From positions 1-21,082 of the IMG/VR virus record IMGVR_UViG_3300030202_001807: a stretch of DNA of 21,082 bases. One strand, 5' to 3'. The DNA is from a virus. This document shows, piece after piece, positions 1 to 21,082 of the stretch; position 1 is the first letter of the stretch, and every line of letters begins with the position of its first letter. A program made the translations under genes and the position numbers. Below the pieces are notes generated by a model, which did no database searches, was not told the origin of the DNA, and was given only the letters and a program-made list of their open reading frames with translations.

Positions 1-3000
1 GAAAGAACCAGTAGTGGAAGAACCACCACCACCGCTTACTGTTGTGAACGATAACGACCCACTACCATTGGTAGTTAGAACCTGCCCGTTACTACCATCA
101 GAAAGCGGGAATGTGTATGTGTCGTTGAACCTAATCTTCCTATCAGGACCGATTCTCAATGCTTCTACTGCATTCTCATGTCCTGCTGATTGTCCTGTCT
201 TCAACACTATTCCTGAACCTGAATCGTTAGTCGCTACCGAGTTAGCGATAATCAATGTGTTATTGTCAGTTGAATCATTATGGAAGACATCGGATGAATG
301 TCCAATGGATGAGTGAATTGTAGTACCATCCAACATGAAGTCTATGTATGGTTGGTCTAACTCACCTGAGTTATCTGAATCTGCCCTCAGTGATAATACT
401 GCATCTCCTGCACCTCCACTTACTATCAGTGTGCTACCATCCCAAGTAAGATTTGATTCTGCATTCATGGCATCTGTGCCTGTTGCAGTTACGATTCTGT
501 TGTTTGAGCCGTTGGTCATGAAGTCAGATACGTCTACTGAAATTGCATTTGCTGCTACATCTATACCAGTTCCTGCACCGATGTTGAGTGTAGCAGAACC
601 ACTAGTTGCACCACCAGTCAGACCGTTACCCGCTACAACTGCGGTGATATCACCACTACCACCACCCGCAGTTACAGCAACTCCTTGTATAGTAATGGCA
701 TTTGCTTCTAGTGTGCCTCTGAAATGTGCATCCTTGAACATTTTGTCAGAACTTCCCAAGTCTACATCATTGTTACTTTGAGGTATTAATCCTCCATCAA
801 ACAAATTAATTTGTTGAGTACCGTCTATTGCAAATGTGATTTGGTTATCTGTACCGAAATCAATTGAAGCACCATTAGAAGCATAACCTATCGCTAAACC
901 TGTATTAAAGACAGAAGAAATACCTGTTTGTGCAGCCGTTATTGCTACGTCATTTGCATTAGCAGTTATGCCAGTACCACCAATAACATTGACTGTTACT
1001 GCTCCACTACTTCCCCCACCTGTTAATCCAGTACCAGCAGTGACTCCTGTTATGTCTCCTGCTACTCCAACAAGGTCAATCGTACCATCAGAATCCTGAT
1101 AGGTCGCAGTAATGTTAGTTTCAGTGTTACTAGAGAACATTGCACCTACAATATCTTGAATCGCTTCCGTTGTCGGAACATCACTTGTATATGCAATAGT
1201 AGAAGCAGTTCCCCAATTCGTAGCATCTTGGTCTGCTCGGTAGTGATAGATTCTCTTTGTGCTGTTCTTAGCGAATGCCAATAGGTTTGCATCTCCACCT
1301 GTATGTCCTGTGAATGAATCTAGCACCAAGGCATCAACGTAGTCACCAGCGTTAGTGGTTGAACCATCCTCTAATCCTGTCTTTGTTGAGAACTTTACTG
1401 ATAGTTCTCTAATGTCGTTGCCTAGGTCTTCAGGAGCAAAGTCCCTATCATCTACGGCCTTCAGATAAGGAGCATGTAATGTTCTGAAATCCAAGTCGAA
1501 TGGGTCTGAATCTGAACCCGGAGATATGTCAGTATAGTTGATGCCTACACTTGTATCTCCACTCCTGAACTTAATCTCTTCAGCGTTTGATATAGAGACC
1601 TCAGTGCCATCATCATCCTCTAGAACGAATGTCATTTGAGAAGTGATATATCCATAGTTCTCAATCTTCTCCTTGATTGCTTGGGAAGTCATTAGAGAAG
1701 TGTCATTGTCGGAGAAAGAAGTATTGATTGAATTAACTGTCGCACCGCTTCCAACTTGTAACTGTTTAACATCTACAACTCCACCAGTGTTGACAACCAG
1801 CGTGTCATTCTGTGCCGTACCTTCTATCTTGAATGGATATGTGTCACTACCAGCGAAGTCCTTGACTACTAATGCACCACCATCAGTATAGATGAAGAAC
1901 TTTCCTTCTGAGTTTTGTATGTTAAGCCCAACACCTCCTGATTGACCCTGATTGCTTGCAGTTATACTTCCCTTCACTTCTAGTTCAGTGGAAGGGTCAT
2001 CAAGTCCAATTCCGACACTACCACCTTTGAACCATGAGTCTCCACCTGCACTCAATCTTAGGTTTGTATCGTATGTTGCAGGGTTTAAACCAGTATGTGT
2101 TCCGTCATATACGTCCCATGCAGTAGCGGTTGAAGTTAGGTTTATCACACCATATTGTGTTTCACCAGCATTACTGCTCCCGCCATAATGGAATTGAATT
2201 ATTGGCTTTGTTCCATCAGCACCGGAAACGTGATGCCACTTACTGAAACCCCAGTTGAAGTTATATTCGTGTGCAGACATACCACCTCCATCGCCGTTCA
2301 CTTGGAACATATAGTCAGCAGCATTGTGGTCACTAGTCGCACCATGTCTGAATCTGATTGCTGGCCCTTTAGCAGTGCCACTGTCTGCTACATCCAATTT
2401 CAATGTCTCAGCATATGAGAATTGAGTTGCAGATGATGGAGCAAGAGCAGATACTACCTCCAACTGAGATGCAGGACTTGTATTTCCTATACCTACCTTA
2501 CCTGCATCATTAATGGTCATGAAGGTGTCTCCACCTGTACCAGTGGTATGTCTACCAAACTGAATATACGAGTCAGAGTTGTTGGAATTCGTGTCCATAT
2601 TCAGACGAATCTTGTCGTATGAGTTGATGGTTAGACTGTCATTGTAATTTCCGTTCTCGGTAGAAGTGATTGAGTGGTTCAGATTTGTTCCGTAGTTATC
2701 TGCGTCCCATGTGAAGTATAGACCACTGAAGCGATATAGGTTGCTTCCTACTCCATTTGCCACTCTACCCGATACATCTCCACCGAATCTGACCTCATCA
2801 TCGGTCTGTGTTCCGAATACTATATCTCCACCTAAGTCTGAGTTTAGTGCAGAGATAACCTCTGCATTACTCAGTTGGGTATCTGAGTTAGTTATTGCTC
2901 CTGTTGCTGCACCTAGATATCCCCATTGTGCTGCCGATATTGTTGTAGAACCTATGTTCTCTAACTGTGCTCCCTCTGCTGCTGTTAAGTTGGATATCTC

Positions 3001-6000
3001 AGTGACCTTGCTTGCTGTTATAGTAGGGATGTGAGATGCTGATAGGTTCGCTGTTATGTTACCAGCAGCAGATAATGCCACTCCTCCTGACGCTGATACC
3101 GCTACTGTTCCTGCTGCATCAGGCAATGTGATTGTTCTATCGGCTGTTACAGAACCTGCTAGTAGAGTTACCTCATTGCCATCTGCTTGATTTCCTTCAA
3201 ATATTACACCATTGCTTGTGCTTACAGTTTCTACATTGTTAGTTGTAGTTGTTCCTGTTACAGTCAAATCTCCTGCTACGGTCATGTCATTGTTTACAGC
3301 GATAGTTCCACTGCTAGATGTTCCAAGCGAGTAACTAGCAACATCATTCAGTAGAGCAGTTATCTCAGATGCCGTTTGGTCTGCTGTTGCAGATGCTTCA
3401 ATGGCGTTTAACTTAGAGTGGTCTGCATCCGTAAATACATTGGAGTTTGTTGCCGACTCAACTAGAGTCCTTATTTCTGCGGCTGTTTGGTCGGCTGTTG
3501 CACTAGCCTCGATAGCATTGAGTTTGCTTAGTAGGGTATCTGTTAGATTATTTGTGTCAGATTCATTGAATAGTGCCGTCTTTATCTCCGCTCCTGTTTG
3601 GTCGGCAGTAGCACTTGCTTCTATTGCATTCAGTTTCGTATGGTCTGCATCTGTAAAGACATTAGAATCAGATGCTGACTCTACTAGTGTCCTTATTTCA
3701 GAAGCAGACTGGTCAGCAGTAGCACTTGTTTCTATTCCATCTAGTTTGTTCTTGAGGGTTGTTGTGAAGTTGTTGTCAGTTTGGCTTGCTACTGAAAGGT
3801 CTATGTCTCCTGTTGAGTCTTGGTATGTGACAGTGATTCCACTCTCAGTGTTTGTAGTGGTAAACATTGCTCCTACAATATCCTGTACTTGTTCATTTGA
3901 CAGTTGAGTATTGGTATCTGTTGTCATATCGTCTACAACGAGGTCAATCGTTCCGTCACCATCTTCGTAGGTAGCACTTATTCTAGTCTCAGTGTTTGAA
4001 CTAAACATCGCTCCTACAATGTCCTGCACTTGTTCTGTTGAGAGTTGTGTGTTGGTATCCGTTGGTGTCTCCCAAGCAACTCCGCTTCCTGTTGAAGTTA
4101 ATACCTGTCCGTCACTACCTTGACCACCATTTATCTTGAAGTTCTCAGAATCAACTAAACCAAAGTAAGAATTTTTGAACTTGAGAGATGAAGTTCCTAA
4201 ATCCACATCGTTATCAACAGGCGGATAAATTGCACCATCTGTAATGTAAATTTGGTCATCACCATTTGCTCTGAGTCTTAATTGATTGGATGAATGCATA
4301 TAGGTGATTCCGCCAGCAATCTGATTAGAGGAATTATAGAAAAAGATAGCATCGTTATTCACATTTCCATTACTATCCCTTTTGAAATTAAGACGACCAT
4401 ACAAAGAAGAAATATCTATGTCGCCTGTTTCATCAAGTGTTCCTGTTATTGTTGGAGTTGCTATTGTCGGTGAAGTTAGAGTTTTGTTAGTCAAGGTTTG
4501 ACTACCTGTAAGTGTAGCAACTGTTGAATCAATGGCTAGAGTTATGTTTCCACTTGAACCGCTATTTGCCCCACCAATACCTGTTCCAGTTGTAATTGTC
4601 TGATTGTTCTCTCCACCTGCACCTGCTGCTACAAGAGTGAAGCCTCCACTTGTATCATCATAACTTAGTAAATGATTATCAGTAGAAGAGTTTGCAGTAT
4701 TTGTTGTACTTATTTTGGCTGCTGTAATAGCGTCATCCGCAATCCTTGCAGTTGCAAAAGTTCCCGATGTAATCTTAGATGCTGCTAGGTTTGGTATATC
4801 AGAAGCAGATAGATTTGCACTGAATGTCTTACCTGATAGAGAAAGACCCGTTCCAGCAGCCAAATGTTGAGTGACGTTTGATTCAGCGATTCTTGCATCT
4901 GCAAAAGTTCCCGAAGTTATTTTGCTTGTAGCAAGACTTGGTATTCTAGCAGTTCCTAATGTCCCACTTGTTATTTTGGAAGACGCTAAGTTTGGTATAT
5001 CACTTGCTGCAAGCCCATCGTCTAGTATGTTTATTTCTGCTAAGGAAGCGGTAATACCTAGATTTGTCAAGGCATTTCCTTGTTGCGTAGAGGTAAGTCC
5101 TTGATTACTAACGTCAACTCTTAATCTGTTTCCTAACGATGTAGCGGTTGTTGTGGAGAAAGAAGCATCGTCACCAAGAGCAGCAGCGAGTTCGTTCAAG
5201 GTATTGAGAGCAGATGGTGATGAGTCTATTAGTCCTGCAACTTCGCTATCGACATATGCTTTTATCGACTGTTGACTAGCAGCAGCAGTTGCACTGTTTG
5301 AACTCATGTCATTTTGGTCTAGTAGTGTCAATTGTGTGTTAGTGTCAGTTGAGGCAATTGTTATCTCTCCACCACTTTCACTTAGAGATACATTGCTACC
5401 CGCAGTGAAAGATAGAACTTCTGTTCCTCCTAGTATGTTTCCGCCAGTCAATCTAACTGTTCTGAAAGTGTTGGTGTCTGCTGTCATGTCGTCAACGACT
5501 AAATCTATCGTTCCATCTCCATCTTCGTATGTTGCAGATACCCTAGTCTCAGTGTTGCTTGTGAACATAGCACCGACAATATCCTGCACTTGTTCGGTGG
5601 TTAGTTGGGTATCAGAAAGAGAAATAGTACCGTTACTAGAGGGAATAGTAAGGTCACTAATCACATTGTTATCGCTACCAACAAAAGATAGAGTTGCTCC
5701 ACTTGATGCGGCTGCTCCGGTTGTTACTCTAAGGTTAGTAGTAGTTGCTCCAATTAGTTGAAAACTATTAGAAAGTGTCTTATCTCCTGTGGCGTTCAAG
5801 TCTATTGTTCCATCACTATCCTCATATGTTGCTGAAATACCTGTTTCTGTATTAGAGGAAAACATTCCTCCAACTATATCTTGAACGTTTTCAGTAGTGA
5901 GAATAGTATCAGTGGTGAATGAAAGGTTGCTCTGCATGTATGATTGTAGTACACTGACATCCATTCTCTTCAATACACCAGCATCGCTTAGAACCAACTC

Positions 6001-6312
6001 ATCAGTAGAAGCAAGCCCACTTGTCAACGCTGATTGTCCTGTGATATCTCCTATCACGAAGTTAGATGCTCCTGAAGAAACAAAGTTCTGTGCTGCTATG
6101 TAGTCGAAAACTGCATCACCAGTGACTAGGTTAGCATTACCATCAGCAACTGAGCCAGTTGTTGCGGCTATCGTGGAATCAAATGACAAAGTTCCATCGT
6201 CATTGATTGTGATTGTCTTGGTTGCATTATTAGCACCAGTAACTTCTATCTTTGGTTTTGCACTCTCTCCTGTGTTTGGCGTAATTAGAATGTCCTTATC
6301 TGAGTTAGCCAT
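1..6312 (-). CDS. Giant modular tail fibre B, 3'-truncated by window edge
   Basis: An open frame begins at ATG 6312-6310 (MANSDKDILITPNTGES...) and continues without a stop to base 1, giving 2104 visible codons; the C-terminus lies outside the window. It is probably a trimeric tail fibre or receptor-binding protein. Five DIVGAM-type repeats lie near residues 137-165, 232-270, 750-790, 800-840 and 1710-1745. A 155-residue block around residues 328-484 is paralogous to fibre A. Four KLNAIE..ATADQ-type units lie at about residues 852-984. Two VGIG..P..LEV modules lie near residues 1269 and 1431, followed by a less repetitive stretch at about 1454-1720 (ENYGYITSQMTFVLEDDDG...). Two VDLGSS..KFK segments, a common prelude to fibre tip domains, lie near residues 700 and 1840. 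The last visible part is Gly/Ser-rich. The start overlaps the fibre A stop (TAATG) and has a strong ribosome binding site. Fibre identity rests on repeat style; the receptor is unknown. Confidence 0.85.
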   Translation of the reverse strand, partial: MANSDKDILITPNTGESAKPKIEVTGANNATKTITINDDGTLSFDSTIAATTGSVADGNANLVTGDAVFDYIAAQNFVSSGASNFVIGDITGQSALTSGLASTDELVLSDAGVLKRMDVSVLQSYMQSNLSFTTDTILTTENVQDIVGGMFSSNTETGISATYEDSDGTIDLNATGDKTLSNSFQLIGATTTNLRVTTGAAASSGATLSFVGSDNNVISDLTIPSSNGTISLSDTQLTTEQVQDIVGAMFTSNTETRVSATYEDGDGTIDLVVDDMTADTNTFRTVRLTGGNILGGTEVLSFTAGSNVSLSESGGEITIASTDTNTQLTLLDQNDMSSNSATAAASQQSIKAYVDSEVAGLIDSSPSALNTLNELAAALGDDASFSTTTATSLGNRLRVDVSNQGLTSTQQGNALTNLGITASLAEINILDDGLAASDIPNLASSKITSGTLGTARIPSLATSKITSGTFADARIAESNVTQHLAAGTGLSLSGKTFSANLSASDIPNLAASKITSGTFATARIADDAITAAKISTTNTANSSTDNHLLSYDDTSGGFTLVAAGAGGENNQTITTGTGIGGANSGSSGNITLAIDSTVATLTGSQTLTNKTLTSPTIATPTITGTLDETGDIDISSLYGRLNFKRDSNGNVNNDAIFFYNSSNQIAGGITYMHSSNQLRLRANGDDQIYITDGAIYPPVDNDVDLGTSSLKFKNSYFGLVDSENFKINGGQGSDGQVLTSTGSGVAWETPTDTNTQLSTEQVQDIVGAMFSSNTETRISATYEDGDGTIDLVVDDMTTDTNTQLSNEQVQDIVGAMFTTTNTESGITVTYQDSTGDIDLSVASQTDNNFTTTLKNKLDGIETSATADQSASEIRTLVESASDSNVFTDADHTKLNAIEASATADQTGAEIKTALFNESDTNNLTDTLLSKLNAIEASATADQTAAEIRTLVESATNSNVFTDADHSKLNAIEASATADQTASEITALLNDVASYSLGTSSSGTIAVNNDMTVAGDLTVTGTTTTNNVETVSTSNGVIFEGNQADGNEVTLLAGSVTADRTITLPDAAGTVAVSASGGVALSAAGNITANLSASHIPTITASKVTEISNLTAAEGAQLENIGSTTISAAQWGYLGAATGAITNSDTQLSNAEVISALNSDLGGDIVFGTQTDDEVRFGGDVSGRVANGVGSNLYRFSGLYFTWDADNYGTNLNHSITSTENGNYNDSLTINSYDKIRLNMDTNSNNSDSYIQFGRHTTGTGGDTFMTINDAGKVGIGNTSPASQLEVVSALAPSSATQFSYAETLKLDVADSGTAKGPAIRFRHGATSDHNAADYMFQVNGDGGGMSAHEYNFNWGFSKWHHVSGADGTKPIIQFHYGGSSNAGETQYGVINLTSTATAWDVYDGTHTGLNPATYDTNLRLSAGGDSWFKGGSVGIGLDDPSTELEVKGSITASNQGQSGGVGLNIQNSEGKFFIYTDGGALVVKDFAGSDTYPFKIEGTAQNDTLVVNTGGVVDVKQLQVGSGATVNSINTSFSDNDTSLMTSQAIKEKIENYGYITSQMTFVLEDDDGTEVSISNAEEIKFRSGDTSVGINYTDISPGSDSDPFDLDFRTLHAPYLKAVDDRDFAPEDLGNDIRELSVKFSTKTGLEDGSTTNAGDYVDALVLDSFTGHTGGDANLLAFAKNSTKRIYHYRADQDATNWGTASTIAYTSDVPTTEAIQDIVGAMFSSNTETNITATYQDSDGTIDLVGVAGDITGVTAGTGLTGGGSSGAVTVNVIGGTGITANANDVAITAAQTGISSVFNTGLAIGYASNGASIDFGTDNQITFAIDGTQQINLFDGGLIPQSNNDVDLGSSDKMFKDAHFRGTLEANAITIQGVAVTAGGGSGDITAVVAGNGLTGGATSGSATLNIGAGTGIDVAANAISVDVSDFMTNGSNNRIVTATGTDAMNAESNLTWDGSTLIVSGGAGDAVLSLRADSDNSGELDQPYIDFMLDGTTIHSSIGHSSDVFHNDSTDNNTLIIANSVATNDSGSGIVLKTGQSAGHENAVEALRIGPDRKIRFNDTYTFPLSDGSNGQVLTTNGSGSLSFTTVSGGGGSSTTGSF
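3361..3757 (-). repeat. Four KLNAIE..ATADQ-type repeats in fibre B
   Basis: Units have the form KL(D/N)(G/A)IE.SATADQ(S/T).(S/A)EI followed by an R(T)LVESA.(D/N)SNVFTDADH linker; one linker is replaced by KTALFNESDTNNLTDTLLS. This is a familiar shaft repeat of marine phage fibres. Related units occur in fibre A at 8700-8965. Confidence 0.85.
4860..5328 (-). repeat. Paralogous block in fibre B (copy 1 of 3)
   Basis: It encodes a run from LLDQNDMSSNSAT through QQSIKAYVDSEVAGL, LNELAAALGDD, LGNRLRV, SLAEINILDDGL, and two SKITSGT..AR units to ESNVTQH. The same order occurs in fibre A at 8221-8685 with most residues conserved, but codons differ at many synonymous positions. It indicates an old duplication or module exchange between the two fibres. 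Confidence 0.85.
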
Positions 6313-9300
6313 TAGTATTCAACCTCCATCTTTCCAACATCCTTTCTCTCACCGTGTATTATGTAGAAACAGTCAACACCCTCGTCTGCTGCATTACCTA
6401 CGAACACACGATTGTCTTCTATCTTTTCTACATATAACATTTGGAACTCACCATTTGCAGTTAATTGTACTGTGATTGTATCTACATCAACTAGTTCCTT
6501 CCAATACTCAGGAAGTTCGATTGATACGCCCATATTGTCACTACCTGTTATTCTACCTCTATGATATACTCCATGCTCCGGTCCTTCAAGAGAACCGTGT
6601 TGTAGTGTCTTACCTTCTTGTGTTGGGTGTGGAATAACGAAAGACTTGGTTTGTGCAGCGAATGACCCTTCTACTTGTAGTTTGTATCCGGGGGTTGCTG
6701 TACCAATACCAACACGATTGTTAGTGGTATCTATCTTGAACGTGTTAGTATCTACTACTACATCTCCCGATACTGTAAGAGCAGACAGTGTTCCTACACT
6801 GGTAATGCCTGATTGTGCAGCATTTACATTCAATGTATCTCCACTAAGAGTTAAACCAGTTCCAGCAGTTAAGTTGGTATCATCTGAGATATCTATTGGG
6901 TCTACTGTAATTGCCTGACCACTGATACTCAAGTAGTTTCCACTACCAGTTAGTGTGACGTTTGTTGAGTTATCAGTTCCAGCAGCATCGACTCCTAATG
7001 CACTTCTAGCCGCAGATGCTGAAGTAGCCCCAGTTCCTCCCAGTGAGAGAGGCACAGTTCCAGCAGTGATTGCCTGTCCTGATAGACTGAGATAGTTGTT
7101 TGATACAGTTGCAAGAGTCACATCTGTTGAGTTATCTGTTCCTGCGACATCCACATTCAAGTTAGTCCTAGCATTAGATTGCTGTGTTCCACTAAGTCCC
7201 TGTGAAGCAGTATCTACTCTCAGTCTGTTGCCGAGTGCAGTAGTAACAGTTGAGGAGAAAGTAGCATCGTCATTTATCGCTGCTGCTAGTTCATTGAGTG
7301 TGTTCAATGTACCCGGAGCAGAATCAACTAATCCTGCTACTTCACTATCTACATACGCCTTAATTGATTGTTGAGTAGCAAGATGTGTTGCTGAGTTAGA
7401 AGCCATATTGTCTTCGTCTTTCACTGGAACTACGAAGTCTATGTTGCCATCAGTATCATCATACGATACGCTGATGAAAGTCTCAGTTCCATCAAGCATA
7501 CCTCCAACAAAGTCTTCCACTTGTTCTTGAGACAGTTGTGTGTTAGTATCGGTAGAACTGAAATTCAACTTACCATTGGTATCATCGTAAGTTACAGAGA
7601 TGTTTGTTTCCGTATTACTACTCACCATTGCTCCTACAATATCCTCTACCTGCTCTGTTGACAACTGAGTGTTAGTGTTGGTGGATGCTATTGTTAGAGT
7701 TCCACTTGCATCATCATATGTCTTTGTTACATTGCTTCCTGCTACTACTAAACTAGCAACAATATCCTCTATTTCCTCTTGTGTCTTTCCACTGGAAGAG
7801 ATGGTTAGAGTTCCTGCTGAATCATCGTATGTCTTAGTTATGTTAGTTCCAGCAACAATCACACCGTTAACGAAGTCTTCTACTTGCTCCTGAGTCAGTT
7901 GAGTATTGGTGTCAGTGCTTGCAAAGTTTAGTTTTCCACCTGTGTCATCATATGTCACTGAAATATTAGTCTCAGTGTTACTACCTACCATAGCCCCTAC
8001 TATATCTTGTACTTGTTCTGTTGAGAGTTGCGTATTAGTGTCGGTAGATGCGATTGTAACCGCTCCTCCACTCTCAGATATCGTTATGTTAGAGCCAGCA
8101 GTAAAAGCAAGAGTCTCACCGTTTGCTAAGGAGTTTCCACCTGCTGTGACACTTCTAGGTGAGGTTAGGTATGCATCTAAATCACTTATCTGTGACTCAG
8201 TGATTGATAATGCTGCTTGGTGTTGAGTTACGCTTCCCTCGGATATCCTTGCATTTGCAAATGTTCCTGAAGTGATTTTACTCGCAGCAAGGCTTGGTAT
8301 TCTTGCTGTGCCTAACGTACCGCTAGTTATCTTGGAAGCAGCGAGACTCGGTATATCGCTTGCAGATAATCCGTCATCTAGAATGTTTATCTCTGCTAGA
8401 CTTGCAGTTATTCCTAAGTTTGTTATTGCATTACCTTGCTGTGTAGCAGTTAGTCCCTGACTGTTGGTGTCTACTCTTAGCCTGTTACCTAGTGCTGTTG
8501 AAGTAGTCGTAGCAAAGTTAGCGTCATCTCCTAAAGCAGCAGCCAACTCATTTAATGTGTCTAGAGCCGCAGGAGCAGAGGAAATCACTCCTGCCACTTC
8601 TGCGTCAACGTATGCTTTTATTGACTGCTGACTGGCTACTTTTGTTGCCGAGTTAGAAGACATGTTATCTTCATCAAGTAAGTCAGAGGAGATTGAGTAG
8701 TTGTTAGCACTAGCAGAGATACCATTCAGTTTTGTGTGGTCTGCGTCTGTGAATACATTGGAGTCAGTTGCTGATTCAACTAGTGCTCGTATCTCAGATG
8801 AAGTTTGGTCTGCTGTCGCACCAGTCTCAATAGCATTCAACTTGGTATGGTCAGCATTAGTAAATACATTTGAGTCTGATGCAGATTCAACTAATGTTCG
8901 TATTTCTGCCGCAGTTTGGTCAGCAGTAGCAGCAGTTTCAATTCCTGCTAGTTTGTCGAACTGGTCATCAGTCATTAACCCATGAACAGATGTTGTTGCA
9001 TCAGGTATAGTAGCAGTAACTGTTGTACCATCTGTTTTTGTTATGGTTAGCGTATTTCCACTGAATGATGTTGAACTTATTGGTTTACTTACTGAATCGA
9101 TTGTCAGTCCCAAATTATTCCTTGAAATTGTAATGTCTCCTACACCTTGGATACCAATGCTAGTCACTGAACCATCTATTCCAGCAAGTTCAAGTTTCTT
9201 CGCATTTGATGTAGAACCATCAACAGCCCTCAACGTATACTGAGTATCAATAGCATCGAATATCTGAACATCCACATATGACTTTACAGCAGTGGTAGTT

Positions 9301-12884: not shown

Positions 12885-13258
12885 TCGTTACCCACCTCTA
12901 ACCTTACTTGAAACGAAACCGTGTCACTTGACCCAACTACTCCGGTGTTTGTGAAGGTGACTCGGCTCAATAAAATACCGTTAGGTGGGGTCGTTCCACT
13001 ACTCTCACTCGTTCCTGTTTTGAATATACCTAATTCGGACACTCCCGAAGATGGTATTTCCGCCCCAGTGAAACTCACGTTGTATATCAGAGAAGAACCT
13101 GCGACATTAGGTATGATTCCTGTTTTCATCCTAACGAAACTATTCAAACCAGTAGACTGCAAGGAAGTTGTATCTCCGCCATTTCCTATTGCTACCACCC
13201 TGTAAGTGGCTGCTATGTGGTCTGCTATCTCGTTTGCTCCTGTGTTCGTTATCGTCAT
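12881..13258 (-). CDS. Small tail/baseplate protein, putative fibre connector (125 aa)
   Basis: MTITNTGANEIADHI opens a 125-residue protein with no signal peptide or membrane segment. The pattern is an N-terminal N.GANEI.D.I segment, a VAIGNGGDTTSL strip, alternating beta strands, then EIPSSGVSELGIF with NGILLSRVTF and a final strand-rich tail. The arrangement 'polar loop, SELGIF, G.LL.R.TF' resembles small wedge or collar-type tail proteins and the N-terminal part of tail-collar fibre families (DUF3751-like). That resemblance is by pattern only. It sits between the hub and fibre A: the ATG is 2 nt after the hub stop, and its TGA overlaps the fibre A ATG. This suggests it bridges the baseplate and the fibre. 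It is real because it fills exactly the space between two coupled genes and has its own ribosome binding site; its function is inferred from context. Confidence 0.75.
   Translation of the reverse strand: MTITNTGANEIADHIAATYRVVAIGNGGDTTSLQSTGLNSFVRMKTGIIPNVAGSSLIYNVSFTGAEIPSSGVSELGIFKTGTSESSGTTPPNGILLSRVTFTNTGVVGSSDTVSFQVRLEVGNE
12893..12898 (-). promoter_or_regulatory. Ribosome binding site of fibre A
   Basis: GAGGTG on the minus strand, 8 nt before ATG 12884, lies inside the end of the 125-residue connector gene. It fits the anti-Shine-Dalgarno of both bacteria and archaea and fixes the fibre A start at the ATGA overlap. Confidence 0.75.
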
Positions 13259-13260
13259 CT

Positions 13261-16200
13261 TTAATCCTCGCTATCGTATTTTATTATCACACTTACGTTT
13301 CCTCTACTGAACCCAACTTCTGTTCCAGTGCTGTCTAGTTCAGCATCTAGGTTCTCGGAAGCCCCATCATCAAAGAAACCTACCTTTGCATTAAAGCCAA
13401 CGTTTGATACTGCACTTGTTCCTGAGATTGTGTAAGTGACATTAGTTACCTCTATCTTCATTTTATCAACAAAAAGAGTGGTATCTCCTCCTGTTACATT
13501 ATTCTTATTGAAAGTGGTGGCAGTATTCTGTCTCTGTCCAGTTCCTAATTCAGTTAGTCTCTCTGCTATTGTCTTGTCGAATGTTCCAACTGTCATTGTG
13601 ATTTGACTTGACAGCACGTTTTCTATCTCAAATATTATGTAGTTCCCACTTGGTATGTTCTGTGCATCGAAACTCAGGCTGACTACATCTCCTGCTTCCA
13701 ATGTTTCCAGCCCCTTTCTTTCTAAGGTTAGTTTTATTCTTCTAGTATCGCTATTGTGCAATTGCAACAACTCAACTGCTCTAACTAAAGCATCTTGTGT
13801 TGTCTTTATTGTTGAGTCTACGAATGTTATCTCTGTTCCATCTATATCCTCTGATGCAGATTGACTGACTCTATCACCTACGACTGTCACTTTGCTCGCC
13901 TTTGCAAATAGAGCAGCATTAGATTCTACTTTGAATAGCCTATTAGTCTTGTAACTTATCTCCTTCTTAACCAACAAGTCTATTCTCCCTAGTCTTCTGA
14001 AATCTATATGCTCCCCGTCTACGTTGAAATCCATCTCCTTCTTGCTTGCTAGCATATTCATCGCATCAAATGCAGATACCTCGGTGAAGTTATTCGTGGC
14101 GATGAATGTTTTCTTCTCTCTCTTTATCAGTTCGTCATTGACTAATGGGGTATACCAAAGGTCGATATCAGGGTCACTGTCAACATCATTGAATGTTATA
14201 TTGCTACCTGAGATACTGGCTACCTTGCCTATTGGTAAGCCCTCATGCGTATATATCACATCACCTGCTTCTATGCCAACAACAGCCTTCTTGCATGTTA
14301 CTATGTGGTTACTGATGCTACTGACTATGTTTCCTGTGAATACCGATTGGGTTTGGATGGTGTCAGTAGTCATTCCAGCCTCTTTTGCTATCCTATCTAT
14401 GGCAGTCTCAATCTCCTCTCCAACCAGCATGGTCGTTCCGATATGACAAGAGGTAACATTACCCAAATCAGGTTTTCTATCCAACTCTACATTTACTACT
14501 TCAGAAAAGGATACAATTCCATTACCAGTGATTGTATCGTTGAATGTCAGTTTTGACTCATACAATCTTTGGTCATCTGAGAGACCATAGGTGTATGTTA
14601 CTCTCTTTCTCTGTTTGTTAGTTCCATCAGTGATGAACATGTCAAATGTTGAGCCACTGGTACATCCTATGATTGCATGTGCAAGTAATGGGTTCACTGA
14701 AAACAACATAGAACTAGTTCTACTATTAAGAGAATCACCTCCCAATGTATCTGTATTCAGCACAACATACATCGATAGAACTCCTTCTGCTAACTTTTCA
14801 TCGAGGCTTCTAACCGCTTTCGTCTTACCTGTTCTGAAACTAGATGGTGTCAGACTGTAATCCAAGCCAGTGTAGTGAAGTCTATTGAGTATTATTTCGT
14901 TGGGAGTATCTCTGAAGGTTGTCTCTGCAAACCTCATGAGCCTGTAAATTCTATCGCTGTTGAAAGCGGAACTTCCAACTATAACATGGTCAATAGTGGA
15001 GTCGCCGTAACTTACTTGCCCTTGCGTATGTGATTCTATTCTGATGATGCCTGTTGAGTTCAATTCCCTTCTTGTTCCTAGTTCAACAGAATTATTAGCA
15101 CCTAGAGATGGGTTAGATATTGCTCCGTTAGTAACTTGATTTAGATTCTCATACCCCCTTTCAGGAACTAGGTAGTACCCTGTTAGATTCGGAACGTATG
15201 ATAGCCAATTGTGCTGTGAGGTATCGCTCTCTATGTTGATTGTTAGCGTCTTAGAATCCTGACCAAGACCATCGTTGACACTGACATTGCTATCACCAGT
15301 GTCCAAGAATGGTTTGACTAGCATCTGAGCCTTGTATATTCCACCACCGCTAGTTGTAGTAAGACGATGATATGTCTCCCTCTTTCCTGATACTTGTTCA
15401 TCCTCCAACGATTCCAAGAATGTTATGTTTCTATTATTGACACTAGAAACCATATCCTTCCTCATGCTATTGATACCACTGAGAGAGTAGTAGTTACTTC
15501 CTTCATTGAAGACAATCGTGTTTCTTGTGTTCTGATAGACCTGACTACTAGACACATCAGTAGCACCTATCCAAGAGGTATAGTCTGATGATGTGTTCAC
15601 ACCTAGTCTAGCACTAGTTTGAATCATGTCAGGATTCGGACCTGATGTAGATACCTTTCTTATATTCCTGAAAACACCAATGCAGTTGTTATATGGATTT
15701 GCGTCATCAGAGTATCCCAACTTATCTAAGTCAACTAAACTGGTAGAAGTAGTTTGGTTAGATACGTTGCTTGCCAAAACTCTCGATGAATGATAGTAAT
15801 GACCACTGTAATCTGAATGACCACTCCAAGCATAATCAGGATGATATGGGCTGACATCCCTACCTGCGGGACTTGTACTAGAGGTGAGAGTATCGAAAAC
15901 AATTGGAAAGAGGATATTTGGTGCATCGAAGTTATCCGTGTACTCAATTATATCAGTGCCTGAAGCCACTTGAGTTCTATTGAGATAGAAGAAGTTGTCA
16001 TCTGCATTCGTATCTAGAGTCAAGGTGTTTCCACTCTTACTAGACCAACGAATCCTGACTCCATTCACTTCTCCAACACCTGCATTAGAGAAGGAAGATG
16101 CACTCGATACTTGTAGCGTGGTACTTCCCCCCACATAAGTAGCACTTGTTTGTGTGGTAACGTCATCTCCCCTGAGATTAGCGAAGGAAAAACCTGTTGA

Positions 16201-19200
16201 CTCATAGTTAGGTCTAACTAGGAATATGCTTGTTAGGTCAGTTTTACCTTCCTTCTGATTATCTGTCTCCTCATCCCTCAAGACTCCCTTGAAGATTGGA
16301 GAAGTAAAGGTCAAGTTTCTATATTCAGGACTTATGTATACTGGTAGGTCAGTAATGCTATCACTTGTGTTCAGGTATCCGGTCATTCCTTGCCAAGTAT
16401 TAGACACTGAATTGATAGCAACGGCACTCCCACTTGCGATTGTTACGTCAGAACCACCATCCTTGTATCCCACCATTTCACCAGTATCTACTCTGAATAT
16501 CGCATCACCAGCACTCAGAGTAATGTTAGAGCCAGTCGTGTGTTCAAGTTGTACGACATTGCTACCAGTGATGCTAAGTGTGAGATTAGTAGCAGGAGTT
16601 CTAGCCTTAAACATCTGATAGTTCAAGAACGTTACTTCTGATTCTTCAGGTGTCGGCATGTTATCGGAATCAACTGGATTGAAATGCCAGTCGAATGTAG
16701 CCTCCACTAACCGAGCAATACCGAATCTCTTCAGTTGGTCGGTTGTTTTGGTTGCAGACTTTATCGGTACAGACTCAAAGTTGCCATCCCGTATATCGGT
16801 CATGCGGGTAGTTCCATCATAGTCCCTGTGATTCACCACTGTTGCTGATTGTGCTCCCTCTGATTGCAGAAGACAACCTAGTTGACTGAACTCAAGGGTA
16901 TTTGCTGAAAGGTTGTTGTACCTCAACTTGGAGTAAGGATACAAGTCACCTGTGCTGTATATCTCATACACCTGTGCCTTGTCATCTATGTTCTTCAAGA
17001 CACTAGATGAAATCGGTACTCTTGAACTAGTGGTACTTGTTCGTGTCAGTAAAGATTTCTGTGGTGGAGTCTTATCAGTACCACCAGTGTCATCTACGAA
17101 TGGGCCGGATGCTGTGTTCAACATAGTCAGGTCATCATCTAGGAAGTTGCTGCCTAGAAGGGGTCTGTTATTTGCTATGTATGTTGAACTACCTAGCGTT
17201 CCATCTGTGTCTATCGGATGTGATATGGCATAGGAGTTTATCTTAGATGCTGATTTGTATATTCCAGCATCCTTGCCAATCAAAGTTCCATCATTGAATT
17301 TCTGTAAATCCCAATATCTGTATACATTGTCACTTGTGTAGATTTTCTGTGAAACGTTTCTTGTGAGTCTATGTAGGAATCCACCGTTGTTTATTGGGGT
17401 ATTCAATAGGTAGAATGAGTGATTACTTCTAGTATCATCCTCATTGTTGACTACCCTACCTAGAACCAATGGACATCTTGGTGCAATCTCCATTGTTGCT
17501 CCTCCATCATCCTTGCTCTCAAAGGAGATGACATCATACGACTCACTTGCCAGTGACATTATACTAATATCTTCAGTATCTACACCTGACTCATTTACAG
17601 TCTTAAGTGCAAACACAGAGTCTGCTGATGATAGTGTATTAGTTAACTCATCTATGCTAATTGTTTCGCCTATGTCGAAACCAAGCGTTCTATTATTCAC
17701 GAAAGAGCCTAACTTGTGTATTGAACTGTTGGAGGTAGCACCAACGGTATCAACTGTGTTCGATGTTCCCTCTAGTTTTCTTGTGCTTAGAGTTCCGTCA
17801 TCTGCTCTGAAGAAACTAACGCTGTCTTGGAAAACCACTCCCTTGTCACTCACTCCCTTGAAGTCGGTTGTAGATGTAATCTGAGGATTGCTCCCAAGTG
17901 CCTTTACTCCTGAGAGATAGTTGGAAAACCTATATGGGTCAATGAATCGGACATTCTTACTGCTTCCAGTGTGAATCGATGAATGTTTTAGAGTAACAAC
18001 ATAGTTGCTACCAACTGTGGCCTTGCTCTCCACTTCACCAATTATCTCACCAGTTGTCATTACAGCAATGGAATGTTTTGGGGCGTTTCTATCTCCACTA
18101 CTAGTAGGCCAAGTAACAGTACCAGTTATTATTCCGCCTGATGTTGTGTTAGTCACTGTTGTATCTGCATTATTTGTACTCTCCCCAACTTGAGGAAGAA
18201 CAGGATTCAAAGTGCTGAATATCATATCCTCAGTATGATTGAGGTTTCTGTTCACCAACTTGTTAAGCAACGCAGATGAGTTGTCCCTACCTTCGATAAT
18301 CATGGTGGATAGACCATTCTCAGTCATGTTATCAGTGGATTCTACTATTCCACTGAATGCCTCTTGTTGAAGACTGAATGAGTTATCATAATAGTAGAAC
18401 CTTTGAATGTTGGAACTCTGATAGAACTTCCTACTTGCGTCTTGAATCTTGACGTATTGCATGTTTCTATCGATGAAGTCAACGAGGTTCTCATGATGTG
18501 AAAGTGAATTGAAAGTAATTCTTGAATTGTAAAACTTGGTGTTTTCCTTGTTGATTGTAGAATCTGATACTGACAATCGGTGATTGTCTGCATATATGAC
18601 ATCAGTTTCAGAGTCAAAACCATCGGTATTTAGTACGCCTGTCCAAAATACAACTTTTGGAACTAAATTCGTAAACTCATGAACTGTTGCTCCTGTACTG
18701 AAAGTATTCTCTGTTTTGGTCTTGCGAGCCTTGGTTGTTAGAACCTGACTACCTGAACTTTTACTAGCGAATGACTGAACAACATAATAGTAGTCTCCTA
18801 TCTCTATGATTGAGTTCACTGGTAGTTTTTCAGATAGTTGATAGTCATGGGCTGAATCTATCTGTGTGAAAGTGATAGTATTTGCACCAGTAGTCTTAGA
18901 GGCTAATACTGGTAGTTCCTTCATTGTGGTCTTATCACTAAATTTAGTGTGAAGAACTTTGAGTTTCTGCCCTCTTTGTATTTTATGAGGTAACATTCCT
19001 GAGTTATTGAGTCCTATCATCTTTGCAATCTTGCTCATTCTGTTTCTTGGGCTATTGACTATGATATCCGACATCGGGCTTATCTTATCGTTCCTGAAGG
19101 GTTTTGGGTCTGATGTGATATATCTAGCAGGACCATTCAACTCTCCATCGAAGTGAGTTGCATTATCAGTGACAGTAGTGCTATCTTGCTCATGTCTTCT

Positions 19201-20451
19201 CATATTGACGAATGACTTTCTCCAAAATGAAGGGTTGAAGTTATTATCTGAGTTGTCAGTGCTTCTCAAATTGTCTACAAGTATTGCATCCAACTTCTGT
19301 CTGCCTTTGTTTGGTATTGCTCCTTTTATCATCGCTTCAGTTCTGAATACTACGTTCTGTATTCCTCTACCGATTTTATACGTCTGAGAATTACCTGTAT
19401 CTGCACTTATCGCTATTCTAGCAAAATCTAGTTGAAAGAAATTTCCACTAATATCCTTTATGTTTCCTAAGAATACGTTACTGCTATTGAAGATGGACAT
19501 TCCTTCGCACAACTTTTCTGTATCACTGGAACTTGCAACTTCAAATCTAACAGAACTACTGCCTTCTTGATATTTGGTGTGTGCATCAGTATCCGTGATT
19601 GTTATGTTAGTTAGAGTAGAGAACCATCGTAGTCTAGTTAGAGTGTACTTCTCCATGTAGTCTAACTGGTCATCCTGCTCAAGTCTGTCATTGTAAAAGT
19701 AAAACGTAGGCTTGCTTACAAAATTAAGCACATCGTAGTTGTCAGTGCTTGCATTGGCATCTCCTCTTAGACCATAACTAACAGCAACTACATCAGTCGC
19801 TGTCTTTGCTGGTCCTTTGAATACCTCAAACTGAGTTCCTTTTGGTATTGGTACGGGATACTTGGGTGAGAACTCTAATCCATCGCCAAACTCATCGAAA
19901 CTAGTTATTCCTGTTATCTTTGCAAAGTGTGGTCTAACAGATGTCTGAGTCGTAGAACTAGTGTCTTGTATTATGGATGGGTTGAGCAGGATGAAGTAGT
20001 CGTAGTTGTCTATATCGATTCCTAGTGTGTCGGTATCAGGAGAATCTTGAGTGTTGTAGACGAACTTTCTGTTAGTATCGCCACTTGCATCAGAACTATA
20101 CACCTTTATTTTGAACGGAGCAGAGTTGTCTCTAGCAGTTCCATAATCAGAAAGAGTTGTATTTACAGGCAGTATTCTGTTTCCTATGCCTGTGTTTGAG
20201 TCATTTGAGATGCTGTTATCATGTGGTCCTTTTCTTATTTCAGTGAATATCGCTGATGGCACTGAAGTAACTGATGAGGTGATGTTCTCTGAATCAACAT
20301 GAGTTGTCTTCAAGATGGGATTAACAGTCACATCTCTGAACGCTGTTCCAGTGCTGAACTCAGATAGTATGTTATCGTAGTTTGAACCAGCATCAGCAAT
20401 GTTCTTCTGAGAGGACATTGGATATGTGAAAGTTCCATTTGCCTTAGCCAT
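13261..20451 (-). CDS. Giant hub-like baseplate/tail protein (2396 aa)
   Basis: The start is placed at ATG 20451 (MAKANGTFTYPMSSQ), one base after the preceding stop and with GGTGA 5 nt upstream. An upstream in-frame ATG at 20490 would overlap the preceding gene and lacks support. Two stretches recall the gp27/late-control-D hub fold. At about residues 690-745, FSGIVES...STMIIEGRDNSSALL matches the 'G.V...i.gRD...LL' signature. At about residues 2104-2294, VTVVGDR, a helix-like DALVRAVELLQLH, KLTLERKGLETLEAGDVVSLSF and IPSGNYIIFEIENVLSSQITM resemble the distal half of tail-associated hub proteins. Some 1350 residues separate them, including several copies of a small G..VG.V..ISG.NIT module and a His/Tyr-rich stretch near 1532-1557. 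The last 85 residues form an extra beta-rich domain. No lysozyme or HExxH peptidase motif was seen. The likely role is baseplate hub or adsorption platform; hub homology is an inference, the virion role is fairly secure. Confidence 0.75.
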   Translation of the reverse strand: MAKANGTFTYPMSSQKNIADAGSNYDNILSEFSTGTAFRDVTVNPILKTTHVDSENITSSVTSVPSAIFTEIRKGPHDNSISNDSNTGIGNRILPVNTTLSDYGTARDNSAPFKIKVYSSDASGDTNRKFVYNTQDSPDTDTLGIDIDNYDYFILLNPSIIQDTSSTTQTSVRPHFAKITGITSFDEFGDGLEFSPKYPVPIPKGTQFEVFKGPAKTATDVVAVSYGLRGDANASTDNYDVLNFVSKPTFYFYNDRLEQDDQLDYMEKYTLTRLRWFSTLTNITITDTDAHTKYQEGSSSVRFEVASSSDTEKLCEGMSIFNSSNVFLGNIKDISGNFFQLDFARIAISADTGNSQTYKIGRGIQNVVFRTEAMIKGAIPNKGRQKLDAILVDNLRSTDNSDNNFNPSFWRKSFVNMRRHEQDSTTVTDNATHFDGELNGPARYITSDPKPFRNDKISPMSDIIVNSPRNRMSKIAKMIGLNNSGMLPHKIQRGQKLKVLHTKFSDKTTMKELPVLASKTTGANTITFTQIDSAHDYQLSEKLPVNSIIEIGDYYYVVQSFASKSSGSQVLTTKARKTKTENTFSTGATVHEFTNLVPKVVFWTGVLNTDGFDSETDVIYADNHRLSVSDSTINKENTKFYNSRITFNSLSHHENLVDFIDRNMQYVKIQDASRKFYQSSNIQRFYYYDNSFSLQQEAFSGIVESTDNMTENGLSTMIIEGRDNSSALLNKLVNRNLNHTEDMIFSTLNPVLPQVGESTNNADTTVTNTTSGGIITGTVTWPTSSGDRNAPKHSIAVMTTGEIIGEVESKATVGSNYVVTLKHSSIHTGSSKNVRFIDPYRFSNYLSGVKALGSNPQITSTTDFKGVSDKGVVFQDSVSFFRADDGTLSTRKLEGTSNTVDTVGATSNSSIHKLGSFVNNRTLGFDIGETISIDELTNTLSSADSVFALKTVNESGVDTEDISIMSLASESYDVISFESKDDGGATMEIAPRCPLVLGRVVNNEDDTRSNHSFYLLNTPINNGGFLHRLTRNVSQKIYTSDNVYRYWDLQKFNDGTLIGKDAGIYKSASKINSYAISHPIDTDGTLGSSTYIANNRPLLGSNFLDDDLTMLNTASGPFVDDTGGTDKTPPQKSLLTRTSTTSSRVPISSSVLKNIDDKAQVYEIYSTGDLYPYSKLRYNNLSANTLEFSQLGCLLQSEGAQSATVVNHRDYDGTTRMTDIRDGNFESVPIKSATKTTDQLKRFGIARLVEATFDWHFNPVDSDNMPTPEESEVTFLNYQMFKARTPATNLTLSITGSNVVQLEHTTGSNITLSAGDAIFRVDTGEMVGYKDGGSDVTIASGSAVAINSVSNTWQGMTGYLNTSDSITDLPVYISPEYRNLTFTSPIFKGVLRDEETDNQKEGKTDLTSIFLVRPNYESTGFSFANLRGDDVTTQTSATYVGGSTTLQVSSASSFSNAGVGEVNGVRIRWSSKSGNTLTLDTNADDNFFYLNRTQVASGTDIIEYTDNFDAPNILFPIVFDTLTSSTSPAGRDVSPYHPDYAWSGHSDYSGHYYHSSRVLASNVSNQTTSTSLVDLDKLGYSDDANPYNNCIGVFRNIRKVSTSGPNPDMIQTSARLGVNTSSDYTSWIGATDVSSSQVYQNTRNTIVFNEGSNYYSLSGINSMRKDMVSSVNNRNITFLESLEDEQVSGKRETYHRLTTTSGGGIYKAQMLVKPFLDTGDSNVSVNDGLGQDSKTLTINIESDTSQHNWLSYVPNLTGYYLVPERGYENLNQVTNGAISNPSLGANNSVELGTRRELNSTGIIRIESHTQGQVSYGDSTIDHVIVGSSAFNSDRIYRLMRFAETTFRDTPNEIILNRLHYTGLDYSLTPSSFRTGKTKAVRSLDEKLAEGVLSMYVVLNTDTLGGDSLNSRTSSMLFSVNPLLAHAIIGCTSGSTFDMFITDGTNKQRKRVTYTYGLSDDQRLYESKLTFNDTITGNGIVSFSEVVNVELDRKPDLGNVTSCHIGTTMLVGEEIETAIDRIAKEAGMTTDTIQTQSVFTGNIVSSISNHIVTCKKAVVGIEAGDVIYTHEGLPIGKVASISGSNITFNDVDSDPDIDLWYTPLVNDELIKREKKTFIATNNFTEVSAFDAMNMLASKKEMDFNVDGEHIDFRRLGRIDLLVKKEISYKTNRLFKVESNAALFAKASKVTVVGDRVSQSASEDIDGTEITFVDSTIKTTQDALVRAVELLQLHNSDTRRIKLTLERKGLETLEAGDVVSLSFDAQNIPSGNYIIFEIENVLSSQITMTVGTFDKTIAERLTELGTGQRQNTATTFNKNNVTGGDTTLFVDKMKIEVTNVTYTISGTSAVSNVGFNAKVGFFDDGASENLDAELDSTGTEVGFSRGNVSVIIKYDSED
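13265..13269 (-). promoter_or_regulatory. Ribosome binding site of the 125-aa connector gene
   Basis: GAGGA on the minus strand, 6 nt before ATG 13258, lies within the final codons of the hub gene just before its TAA at 13263-13261. It is weaker than the two fibre sites. Confidence 0.6.
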
Positions 20452-20452
20452 C

Positions 20453-21082
20453 TCACTCACCAAACGTATAGTAGAACAAAGTATCACCAAAGTTCGGTGT
20501 CAATGTGGATATAGTAGCACATGGTTGAAGTCCCTTGTGCATTGAAACTTCATACAACTCACCCATGAACTGAGTATTCGTGTTTGAACCATCCTGCCCT
20601 ATGTAGCAATCTACATCATCAAATTCAAAATTCTCAATGTCTAGTTTCTTCTTCTGCACTAGCACATTGTTCAAGTAAAGGTTAACATGTCTCTTATCGA
20701 AGGAGCAAGATACCTTGTTCAATTGCTCAAGATACAGTGCCTCTCTTGGTTGTGATATATACATGGTTGAGGTAATGGGTGTAGCAGGTGAAGCAGTTAA
20801 GGTGATATTGTTGCCACTTACTGATGAAACAGTTCCAACTAAAACACCTGCGTTATTGAAAACCTGATTACCAGCACCAACATCATCAGCCTCTCCTGAA
20901 CTGACGGTAAACGCATTACCACTACCACCACTAAATGAGGACAAAGTAACCTGTGAGGACATGTTAGATGTTCTAGCCAATGCATGACTTCCAGTTGGTG
21001 CGGTTGCTGTAACAGTCACTACATTGCTGGATGCAGATGCATTCATTGCAGGACTGAACTGAGCATGTCCATTTGAACTGGC
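20453..21082 (-). CDS. C-terminal part of LamG/concanavalin-like virion protein, 5'-truncated
   Basis: The frame is open from the right edge of the window, so the true start lies outside; the ATG at 21046 is probably internal, because 12 sense codons precede it in frame. About 209 residues are visible. The last 100 look like the C-terminal half of a laminin-G/concanavalin A-like jelly roll: VSCSFDKRHVNLYLNNVLV, then FEFDDVDCYIGQDGS, QFMGELYEVSMHKG and the closing DTLFYYTFGE. Such domains usually bind glycans or act as adhesive modules on virions. Ahead of it, at about 20755-20910, is a Gly/Ser-rich beta module (NNAGVLVGTVSSVSGNNITL) that also recurs in the hub protein and may be inserted within the jelly roll. 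The gene ends with TGA one base before the hub ATG, so the two are probably cotranslated. It could be a tail tip, baseplate decoration or receptor-binding protein. Confidence 0.72.
   Translation of the reverse strand, partial: ASSNGHAQFSPAMNASASSNVVTVTATAPTGSHALARTSNMSSQVTLSSFSGGSGNAFTVSSGEADDVGAGNQVFNNAGVLVGTVSSVSGNNITLTASPATPITSTMYISQPREALYLEQLNKVSCSFDKRHVNLYLNNVLVQKKKLDIENFEFDDVDCYIGQDGSNTNTQFMGELYEVSMHKGLQPCATISTLTPNFGDTLFYYTFGE
20457..20461 (-). promoter_or_regulatory. Ribosome binding site deciding the hub gene start
   Basis: GGTGA on the minus strand, 5 nt before ATG 20451, overlaps the last codons of the lectin-like gene. The junction reads TGAGATG, a one-base gap. This favours MAKANG... 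over the in-frame ATG at 20490, which would give 13 additional hydrophobic-rich residues. Confidence 0.65.

What the first reader, a model, noticed from the sequence alone, without database searches (positions are those of the whole stretch)
1..21082. Near-total loss of GATC (1 site) and complete loss of AGCT (0 sites) across 21 kb
I read every line for both palindromes. GATC appears only at 11208-11211 and AGCT nowhere. With this composition, chance alone would give very roughly 70-80 of each. GCT occurs hundreds of times and I never saw it preceded by A. Other palindromes such as CTAG, CATG, GTAC, TGCA and TCGA are common, so this is not general palindrome avoidance. Codon choice fits selection: where an Asp codon is followed by C, GAC is used (for example GAT GAC CAA in ADDQ, GAT GAC CCT in LDDPS), avoiding GAT-C. 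Strong loss of two words in a lytic virus usually reflects restriction by host systems cutting those sites, here of MboI/DpnII type and AluI type. It could be used to match the virus to a host carrying both specificities.
Basis: partly seen in the sequence, partly recalled or inferred. Interest (0 to 1): 0.78.

Follow-up and report, generated by a model that had tools for sequence, protein, structure and literature searches.

The report
Archaeal viruses purged of restriction sites
This piece of an ocean archaeal virus lacks two very common four-letter DNA words (GATC and AGCT), and almost every one of the more than 100 related virus genomes lacks them too, most likely because the host's DNA-cutting defences have made those words lethal for a very long time.

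Summary
The window has 0 AGCT (about 99 expected from dinucleotides; codon shuffles 107±8) and 1 GATC (82 expected; shuffles 72±7). The single GATC sits exactly where one 60-nt tail-fibre repeat unit is missing relative to relatives, and no relative examined has it.

The window belongs to the magroviruses, tailed viruses attributed to marine archaea (Poseidoniales). In 110 non-redundant related loci (1.97 Mb, roughly 29-45% GC), GATC occurs 35 times against 8,096 expected and AGCT 96 against 7,698. GATC is zero in 109 loci and AGCT in 108. CCWGG is almost as strictly absent, and GC-rich six-base palindromes are strongly reduced. GTAC, ACGT, CGCG or GCGC are lost only in some lineages. Four contigs show one word restored while the other stays at zero.

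No methyltransferase of three families was found in the long viral contigs tested. Some Poseidoniales genomes carry a DpnII-like GATC methyltransferase beside a nuclease-like gene. The best explanation is long-lasting Type II restriction in the host population, with site elimination as the viral answer. That mechanism is known; its near-absolute enforcement across a whole virus group appears unreported in the papers I could search. An AGCT system in the host was not identified.

The parts
1..21082 (.). Whole window: 0 AGCT, 1 GATC, 0 GCGC, 0 CGCG, 0 CCAGG/CCTGG; GC-rich six-base palindromes 2 of 60 expected
   Evidence: Counts and Markov expectations; codon shuffles and palindrome profile
11208..11211 (.). 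The only GATC, at the junction of an in-frame 60-nt (20-residue) repeat contraction in a tail-fibre-like gene; a probable collapse artefact or rare deletion product
   Evidence: BLASTN of 11100-11320: the left half matches one repeat copy and the right half the next copy; no aligned relative has GATC there. Translation: L009 has NQGVTSAKIA-NNAVISAKIANDAVLTAHIA-DDQ where the window has NQGVTSAKIA-DDQ
1..6312 (-). Partial long repetitive ORF (2104 aa, runs off the window), tail-fibre-like by its repeats and position
   Evidence: ORF scan; inference from neighbouring gene
6312..12884 (-). 2190-aa tail-fibre-like protein holding the lone GATC
   Evidence: PHROG tail-fibre families, best E 2.7e-39
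12881..13258 (-). 125-aa small conserved structural-module protein (phrog_5417, unknown function)
13261..20490 (-). 2409-aa conserved large tail-module protein used to find relatives; start codon uncertain
   Evidence: 41 related loci in IMG/VR at 32-100% identity; no Pfam or PHROG family
20453..21046 (-). 197-aa ORF with a weak laminin-G-like match; 3' part of a longer frame that runs off the window

Best explanation
The window is part of a magrovirus, a lytic-type tailed virus attributed to Poseidoniales (Marine Group II archaea). Type II restriction endonucleases in the host population cut unmethylated GATC and AGCT, and also CCWGG and other palindromes. The viruses appear not to protect their DNA by methylation. 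Selection has instead removed the sites and keeps them out. Because viral populations are huge, a restriction system present in only a small fraction of hosts would be enough to hold site numbers near zero (inference from mutation-selection balance). GATC and AGCT systems have persisted long enough to be purged from nearly the whole viral group; other specificities come and go between lineages. Shown: the absence, its breadth, its independence word by word, no detected methyltransferase of three families in the virus contigs, and a GATC-type methyltransferase with a neighbouring nuclease-like ORF in some Poseidoniales. Inferred: cleavage itself, the AGCT enzyme, and the host assignment of this particular contig.
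For: Codon-shuffle and Markov tests. Group-wide zeros in 110 non-redundant loci, and over long contigs: ten contigs of 46-92 kb and four of 95-103 kb. The 8 sites in contig G011 (6 AGCT, 2 GATC; 98-99.9% identical to G003, which has none) were compared with relatives for 7 of the 8: five lie at indels or a repeat collapse, one at substitutions, one where no close relative aligns, consistent with sequencing errors for most. Words vary independently: exceptions restore AGCT only (L272/G063, L335/G064) or GATC only (L315/G066, L281/G065); GTAC is zero in 11 loci, ACGT in 8, CGCG in 17 of 44, GCGC in 7 of 79, with GTAC and ACGT losses scattered over the TerL tree. Targets are typical Type II palindromes: CCWGG zero in 100 of 108 loci, CTCGAG 0/218, GGTACC 0/161; 21 of 56 six-base palindromes at O/E below 0.1 versus 0 of 56 in Poseidoniales DNA and 1.1% of non-palindromic hexamers. 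No N6_N4 (43 records), MethyltransfD12 (18) or m5C (28) methyltransferase in viral contigs. Poseidoniales single-cell genomes G044 and G050 encode a Dam-family enzyme (the G044 copy is closest in the PDB to DpnII methylase, E 2e-47; the two are 89% identical) beside an ORF with a D...E-x-K-like motif. Control: of 80 viral contigs that carry a Dam-like gene, none lacks GATC.
Against: Strong full-length Dam-like hits occur in only about 4 of 293 sampled Poseidoniales species, and patchy, variable R-M systems would not obviously enforce the same two words everywhere. No AGCT-specific enzyme was identified. The one MGII methylome I could read reports CGCG and GGTAG, not GATC or AGCT (PMC9516812). 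Host genomes themselves contain both words (O/E 0.57 and 0.63). GC-rich hexamer depletion is not unique: P-SSM2 is at 0.12. Other methyltransferase families were not searched in the viruses, and MethyltransfD12 was not searched in the first 25 records.
Confidence: 0.75

Rival explanations
1. Virus-encoded nucleases: magroviruses make enzymes that cut GATC and AGCT to degrade host or competitor DNA, and spare their own genome by lacking the sites, as a substitute for the methyltransferases that chlorella viruses use (the comparison is from general knowledge).
For: The two words are nearly universally absent in the virus group, while methyltransferases of the expected types look rare in host genomes. 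Magroviruses encode a PD-(D/E)XK nuclease and an ERCC4 nuclease, and ICTV mentions restriction-enzyme-like nucleases for a magrovirus family (PMC12999244).
Against: Many other palindromes are also lost, lineage by lineage, which would need many viral nucleases. The PD-(D/E)XK protein resembles RecB/Cas4/Exo5-type exonucleases, not a site-specific enzyme. The exceptions keep the conserved structural genes; their replication modules are not in the contigs, so loss of a nuclease there could not be tested.
Confidence: 0.1
2. Another host discrimination system, such as phosphorothioation-linked defence (GATC is recalled as a motif of one archaeal system) or an undescribed Poseidoniales nuclease, recognises these words.
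For: Scarcity of classical methyltransferases in Poseidoniales genomes.
Against: Independent loss of many different Type II-like palindromes fits ordinary restriction better. Phosphorothioation genes were not searched for here.
Confidence: 0.08
3. Mutational or compositional bias without restriction.
For: Some words such as TTAA and CACA are moderately low in the window and the group.
Against: Zero against about 100 expected after codon shuffling; constant from 29 to 45% GC; single-word relaxations in close relatives.
Confidence: 0.01
4. Laboratory artefact, such as digestion with 4-base cutters during library making that favours site-free genomes.
For: DpnII-type and AluI-type enzymes are common laboratory reagents (general knowledge).
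Against: Relatives come from many separate IMG datasets and were found by protein similarity, not by site content; a few relatives with sites were recovered in the same way; other words vary by lineage.
Confidence: 0.02

Closest known systems
Restriction-site avoidance or elimination in non-temperate dsDNA phages (Rusinov et al. 2018, PMC6286503)
   Same: Short palindromic Type II sites are missing from a lytic-type dsDNA viral genome; GATC is among the sites known to be avoided (below expectation in all 46 phages whose hosts carry a corresponding Type IIM enzyme).
   Different: That study scores single virus-host pairs and sees elimination (compositional bias below 0.1) in only 7.5% of cases. 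Here the same two words are exactly zero in about 98-99% of a whole divergent virus group, with a third (CCWGG) nearly so.
Magroviruses (order Magrovirales: Aoguangviridae, Apasviridae; PMC10768690, PMC12999244)
   Same: Gene content of the related contigs: family B polymerase split in two genes, primase-like and PCNA-like proteins, clamp loader, ERCC4 nuclease, TFB-like factor, ligase, prohead protease, portal, terminase; contigs up to 103 kb.
   Different: No word avoidance was mentioned in the magrovirus papers I could read; named reference genomes were not available for direct comparison.
DpnII/MboI-type GATC restriction-modification
   Same: Poseidoniales genomes G044 and G050 hold a Dam-family methyltransferase closest to DpnII methylase, followed by a nuclease-like ORF.
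   Different: The neighbouring ORF matches no known family or solved structure by sequence; specificity and cleavage are untested.

Membership tests
Magroviruses (Magrovirales) | Tailed-virus morphogenesis module (terminase, portal, prohead protease, major capsid protein, large tail proteins) | tested here: met
   Terminase, portal, Peptidase_S78 and SU10-type MCP in related contig G019; the window itself holds only the tail part, linked to relatives by its 2409-aa protein
Magroviruses (Magrovirales) | Virus-encoded archaeal-type replisome (split PolB, primase, PCNA, RFC, ligase) plus TFB and ERCC4 genes | tested here: met
   Met in related full-length contigs: PolB in two genes, ERCC4, RFC-like AAA, ligase, TFIIB zinc ribbon. 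Primase and PCNA are my reading of conserved alignments, not family hits. Not present in the window, which is a fragment
Magroviruses (Magrovirales) | Genome of about 90-110 kb | tested here: inconclusive
   The window is a 21 kb fragment; related contigs reach 102.7 kb
Magroviruses (Magrovirales) | Poseidoniales host | not tested
   Taken from the literature (PMC12999244, PMC10768690); no host gene or spacer link was sought for this contig
Restriction-site elimination under Type II R-M pressure | Site count far below a codon-aware expectation | tested here: met
   AGCT 0 against 107 and GATC 1 against 72
Restriction-site elimination under Type II R-M pressure | Eliminated words are orthodox Type II palindromes | tested here: met
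   GATC, AGCT, CCWGG, GGWCC and several six-base palindromes
Restriction-site elimination under Type II R-M pressure | Virus lacks its own protecting methyltransferase | tested here: met
   No PF01555 hit in 43 viral records, PF02086 in 18, PF00145 in 28; other families not searched
Restriction-site elimination under Type II R-M pressure | Host carries matching endonuclease and methyltransferase | tested here: inconclusive
   GATC: plausible pair in some Poseidoniales genomes. AGCT: no specificity could be assigned

The most novel reading that the evidence does not exclude
An entire order of archaeal viruses lives under a permanent ban on two tetranucleotides imposed by an agent that is not a classical, patchily distributed R-M system: either a conserved but unrecognised Poseidoniales defence, or viral nucleases used as weapons with self-protection by site loss instead of methylation.
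Probability: 0.15. Interest if true: 0.82.

Novelty: new variant of a known kind. Interest (0 to 1): 0.64.

Why it matters
Site avoidance is usually described one virus and one host at a time and is usually partial. Here a widely sampled group of archaeal viruses appears fully purged of the same two or three words, which implies long-persistent restriction in uncultured, very abundant marine archaea. It gives a sequence-only readout of host restriction: each viral lineage's set of missing palindromes predicts which enzymes its hosts carry. It also suggests that metagenome-assembled Poseidoniales genomes under-report such systems: single-cell genomes showed them more often (strong PF02086 in 2 of 15 against about 3 of 283; PF00145 in 6 of at most 13 against 30 of about 280; approximate groupings, chosen after seeing the data).

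Tried and rejected
Named magrovirus and Satyavativiridae records (ON649702, OR863078, PP497040) and a Nitrosopumilus spindle virus (MK570053) are not in the collections. The window, its large protein and the MCP had no match in INPHARED phages. I looked for mobile elements carrying a Poseidoniales-like Dam gene to test a second, unrelated virus group; the best hits were only 48-49% identical and none could be tied to Poseidoniales. Unique ORFs of the exceptional contigs gave no methyltransferase or nuclease family. The structural-module genes of the exceptions showed no shared loss that I could see. My first thought that GC-rich hexamer loss is special to magroviruses was weakened by the P-SSM2 control. 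The G065 contig's GATC sites all lie right of about 12.9 kb, past the point where close relatives stop matching well, so it is a recombinant or chimera and not good evidence of gradual relaxation. Key methylome and magrovirus papers were not held.

Full report
Observation. Exact counting confirms the finding: AGCT 0 and GATC 1 (at 11208) in 21,082 bases. First-order Markov expectations are 99 and 82. Because almost all of the window is coding, I shuffled synonymous codons within each gene 300 times: AGCT 106.7±7.9 (range 85-129), GATC 72.1±6.8 (range 52-89). Composition and codon usage do not explain the absence. GCGC and CGCG are also absent (19±4 and 11±3 expected by shuffling), as is CCWGG, though its expectation is smaller.

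The single GATC. BLASTN of 11100-11320 against relatives shows that the sequence left of the site matches one tail-fibre repeat copy and the sequence right of it matches the next; no aligned relative has GATC. In translation the window reads NQGVTSAKIA-DDQ where relative L009 reads NQGVTSAKIA-NNAVISAKIANDAVLTAHIA-DDQ. The window lacks one in-frame 60-nt unit, and the junction creates the GATC. This is either an assembler collapse or a rare natural deletion; I cannot tell which.

What the window is. The record is a 21 kb IMG/VR contig. Its ORFs are giant tail-module proteins on the minus strand. The 2409-aa protein has 41 related loci in IMG/VR at 32-100% identity. Full-length relatives carry the gene set described for magroviruses: family B polymerase in two genes, ERCC4 nuclease, RecB/Cas4-like PD-(D/E)XK nuclease, RFC-like clamp loader, ATP-dependent ligase, TFIIB-type zinc ribbon, ribonucleotide reductase, portal, prohead protease, SU10-type capsid protein and terminase, plus conserved proteins I read as primase and PCNA. 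This matches the ICTV descriptions (PMC10768690, PMC12999244), whose viruses are attributed to Poseidoniales. The host of this particular contig was not tested.

Breadth. All 41 first-round loci have zero AGCT and zero GATC. Ten contigs of 46-92 kb have 6 AGCT and 2 GATC against about 2,476 and 2,020 expected, all in one contig, G011. G011 is 98-99.9% identical over long stretches to G003, which has none. Of the eight sites, seven were visible in the alignment output: five fall at indels or a repeat collapse, one at two adjacent substitutions, and one (49766) has no close aligned relative; the eighth (86128) was cut off in the output. Polymerase and terminase scans added 160 loci, of which 156 have zero of both words, and two further terminase scans agree. 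After removing redundancy, 110 loci and 1.97 Mb hold 35 GATC (8,096 expected) and 96 AGCT (7,698 expected); zero in 109 and 108 loci. Four contigs of 95-103 kb have zero of both.

Exceptions. Four contigs restore exactly one word: G063 and G064 have AGCT at about two thirds of expectation with GATC at zero; G066 has GATC at 58% with AGCT at zero; G065 has GATC only beyond about 12.9 kb, to the right of where close relatives stop matching well. They are isolated tips on the TerL tree, except that G065 and G066 share one clade. The two words are therefore under separate control.

Other words. CCWGG is zero in 100 of 108 loci; GGWCC in 54 of 107; GTAC in 11, ACGT in 8, CGCG in 17 of 44, GCGC in 7 of 79. 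GTAC and ACGT losses are scattered across the tree. Of 56 six-base palindromes free of GATC and AGCT, 21 have O/E below 0.1 in the virus pool, against none in Poseidoniales DNA and none in a pool of 80 Dam-bearing viral contigs, and 1.1% of non-palindromic hexamers. One caution: cyanophage P-SSM2 also shows strong GC-rich hexamer depletion (0.12), so that part is not special to magroviruses. The near-absolute, group-wide loss of GATC, AGCT and CCWGG is what stands out.

Methyltransferases. None of the families PF01555 (43 viral records), PF02086 (18 records) and PF00145 (28 records) was found in the viral contigs tested; other families were not searched. In contrast, none of 80 viral contigs with a Dam-like gene lacks GATC, and three lack AGCT.

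Host side. Using a recalled Group II 16S probe I retrieved 67 loci, nearly all titled Poseidoniales, Marine Group II or Euryarchaeota. Their DNA holds GATC at 0.57 and AGCT at 0.63 of expectation, so the hosts do not share the absolute ban. Strong full-length Dam-family hits are rare: about 4 of 293 species. Two single-cell genomes, G044 and G050, encode a Dam-family enzyme; the G044 copy is closest among solved structures to DpnII methylase (E 2e-47; E. coli-type Dam 2e-38). It is followed by a 255-259-aa ORF with a D...E-x-K-like motif and no known family. Among 15 single-cell genomes 2 have the strong Dam hit, against about 3 of 283 others; for PF00145 the figures are 6 of at most 13 against 30 of about 280. 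The groups are approximate and were compared after seeing the data, but they suggest that assembled metagenome bins lose such islands. No AGCT enzyme could be named, since family profiles do not give specificity.

Interpretation. Ordinary Type II restriction in the host population explains the palindromic nature of the words, their independent loss and recovery, and the apparent lack of viral methyltransferases. A system need not be common: in very large viral populations, even a small average cost per site exceeds the mutation rate by far, which keeps sites near zero (inference). What is unusual is the constancy of the same words across a deep virus group. A virus-encoded nuclease remains possible, because the replication modules of the exceptional contigs are not available.

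Novelty. Elimination of restriction sites is a known strategy, seen in 7.5% of virus-site cases in one survey, with GATC among the avoided sites (PMC6286503). I found no report of it for magroviruses in the papers I could search, though several key papers were not held. I rate it a new variant of a known kind.

Noticed in passing
window 1-21082: GCGC, CGCG and CCWGG are also absent; CCAGA is absent too (about 16 expected by third-order Markov), and CACG is very low.
   Followed up: partly
window 11100-11330; L009 19060-19400: In-frame 60-nt tail-fibre repeat contraction in the window relative to relatives, whose junction creates the only GATC.
   Followed up: yes
G011 (L049-L053), positions 3447, 4420, 38468, 48693, 49766, 54030, 54397, 86128: A contig nearly identical to G003 carries 8 forbidden words, mostly at indels or a repeat collapse; forbidden words could serve as a detector of sequencing error in these viruses.
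   Followed up: partly
G065 (L344-L345), about 12.7-13.0 kb: Mosaic contig: left part GATC-free and like L279/L431, right part with normal GATC and weaker similarity; recombinant or assembly chimera.
   Followed up: partly
L567, L574, L579 (and L578 with one site): Small low-GC contigs with a Dam gene have normal GATC but zero or one AGCT; L578 also encodes a PolB and a small heat-shock protein. Another virus type that avoids AGCT.
   Followed up: no
L153-L168 (Poseidoniales): A conserved PF01555 methyltransferase of about 310-390 residues in many Poseidoniales genomes; it may be the CGCG enzyme reported for MGIIa (PMC9516812), which would fit the viral lineages that lack CGCG.
   Followed up: no
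Poseidoniales single-cell genomes G044, G050, G051, G270, G277, G282, G290, G296: DNA methyltransferase genes appear more often in single-cell genomes than in the rest of the sampled order, mostly metagenome bins.
   Followed up: partly
L148 638-1402 (-), L147 628-1404 (-): A 255-259-aa ORF beside a DpnII-like methyltransferase, with a D...E-x-K-like motif and (for the L148 copy) no family or PDB match: candidate new GATC endonuclease.
   Followed up: partly
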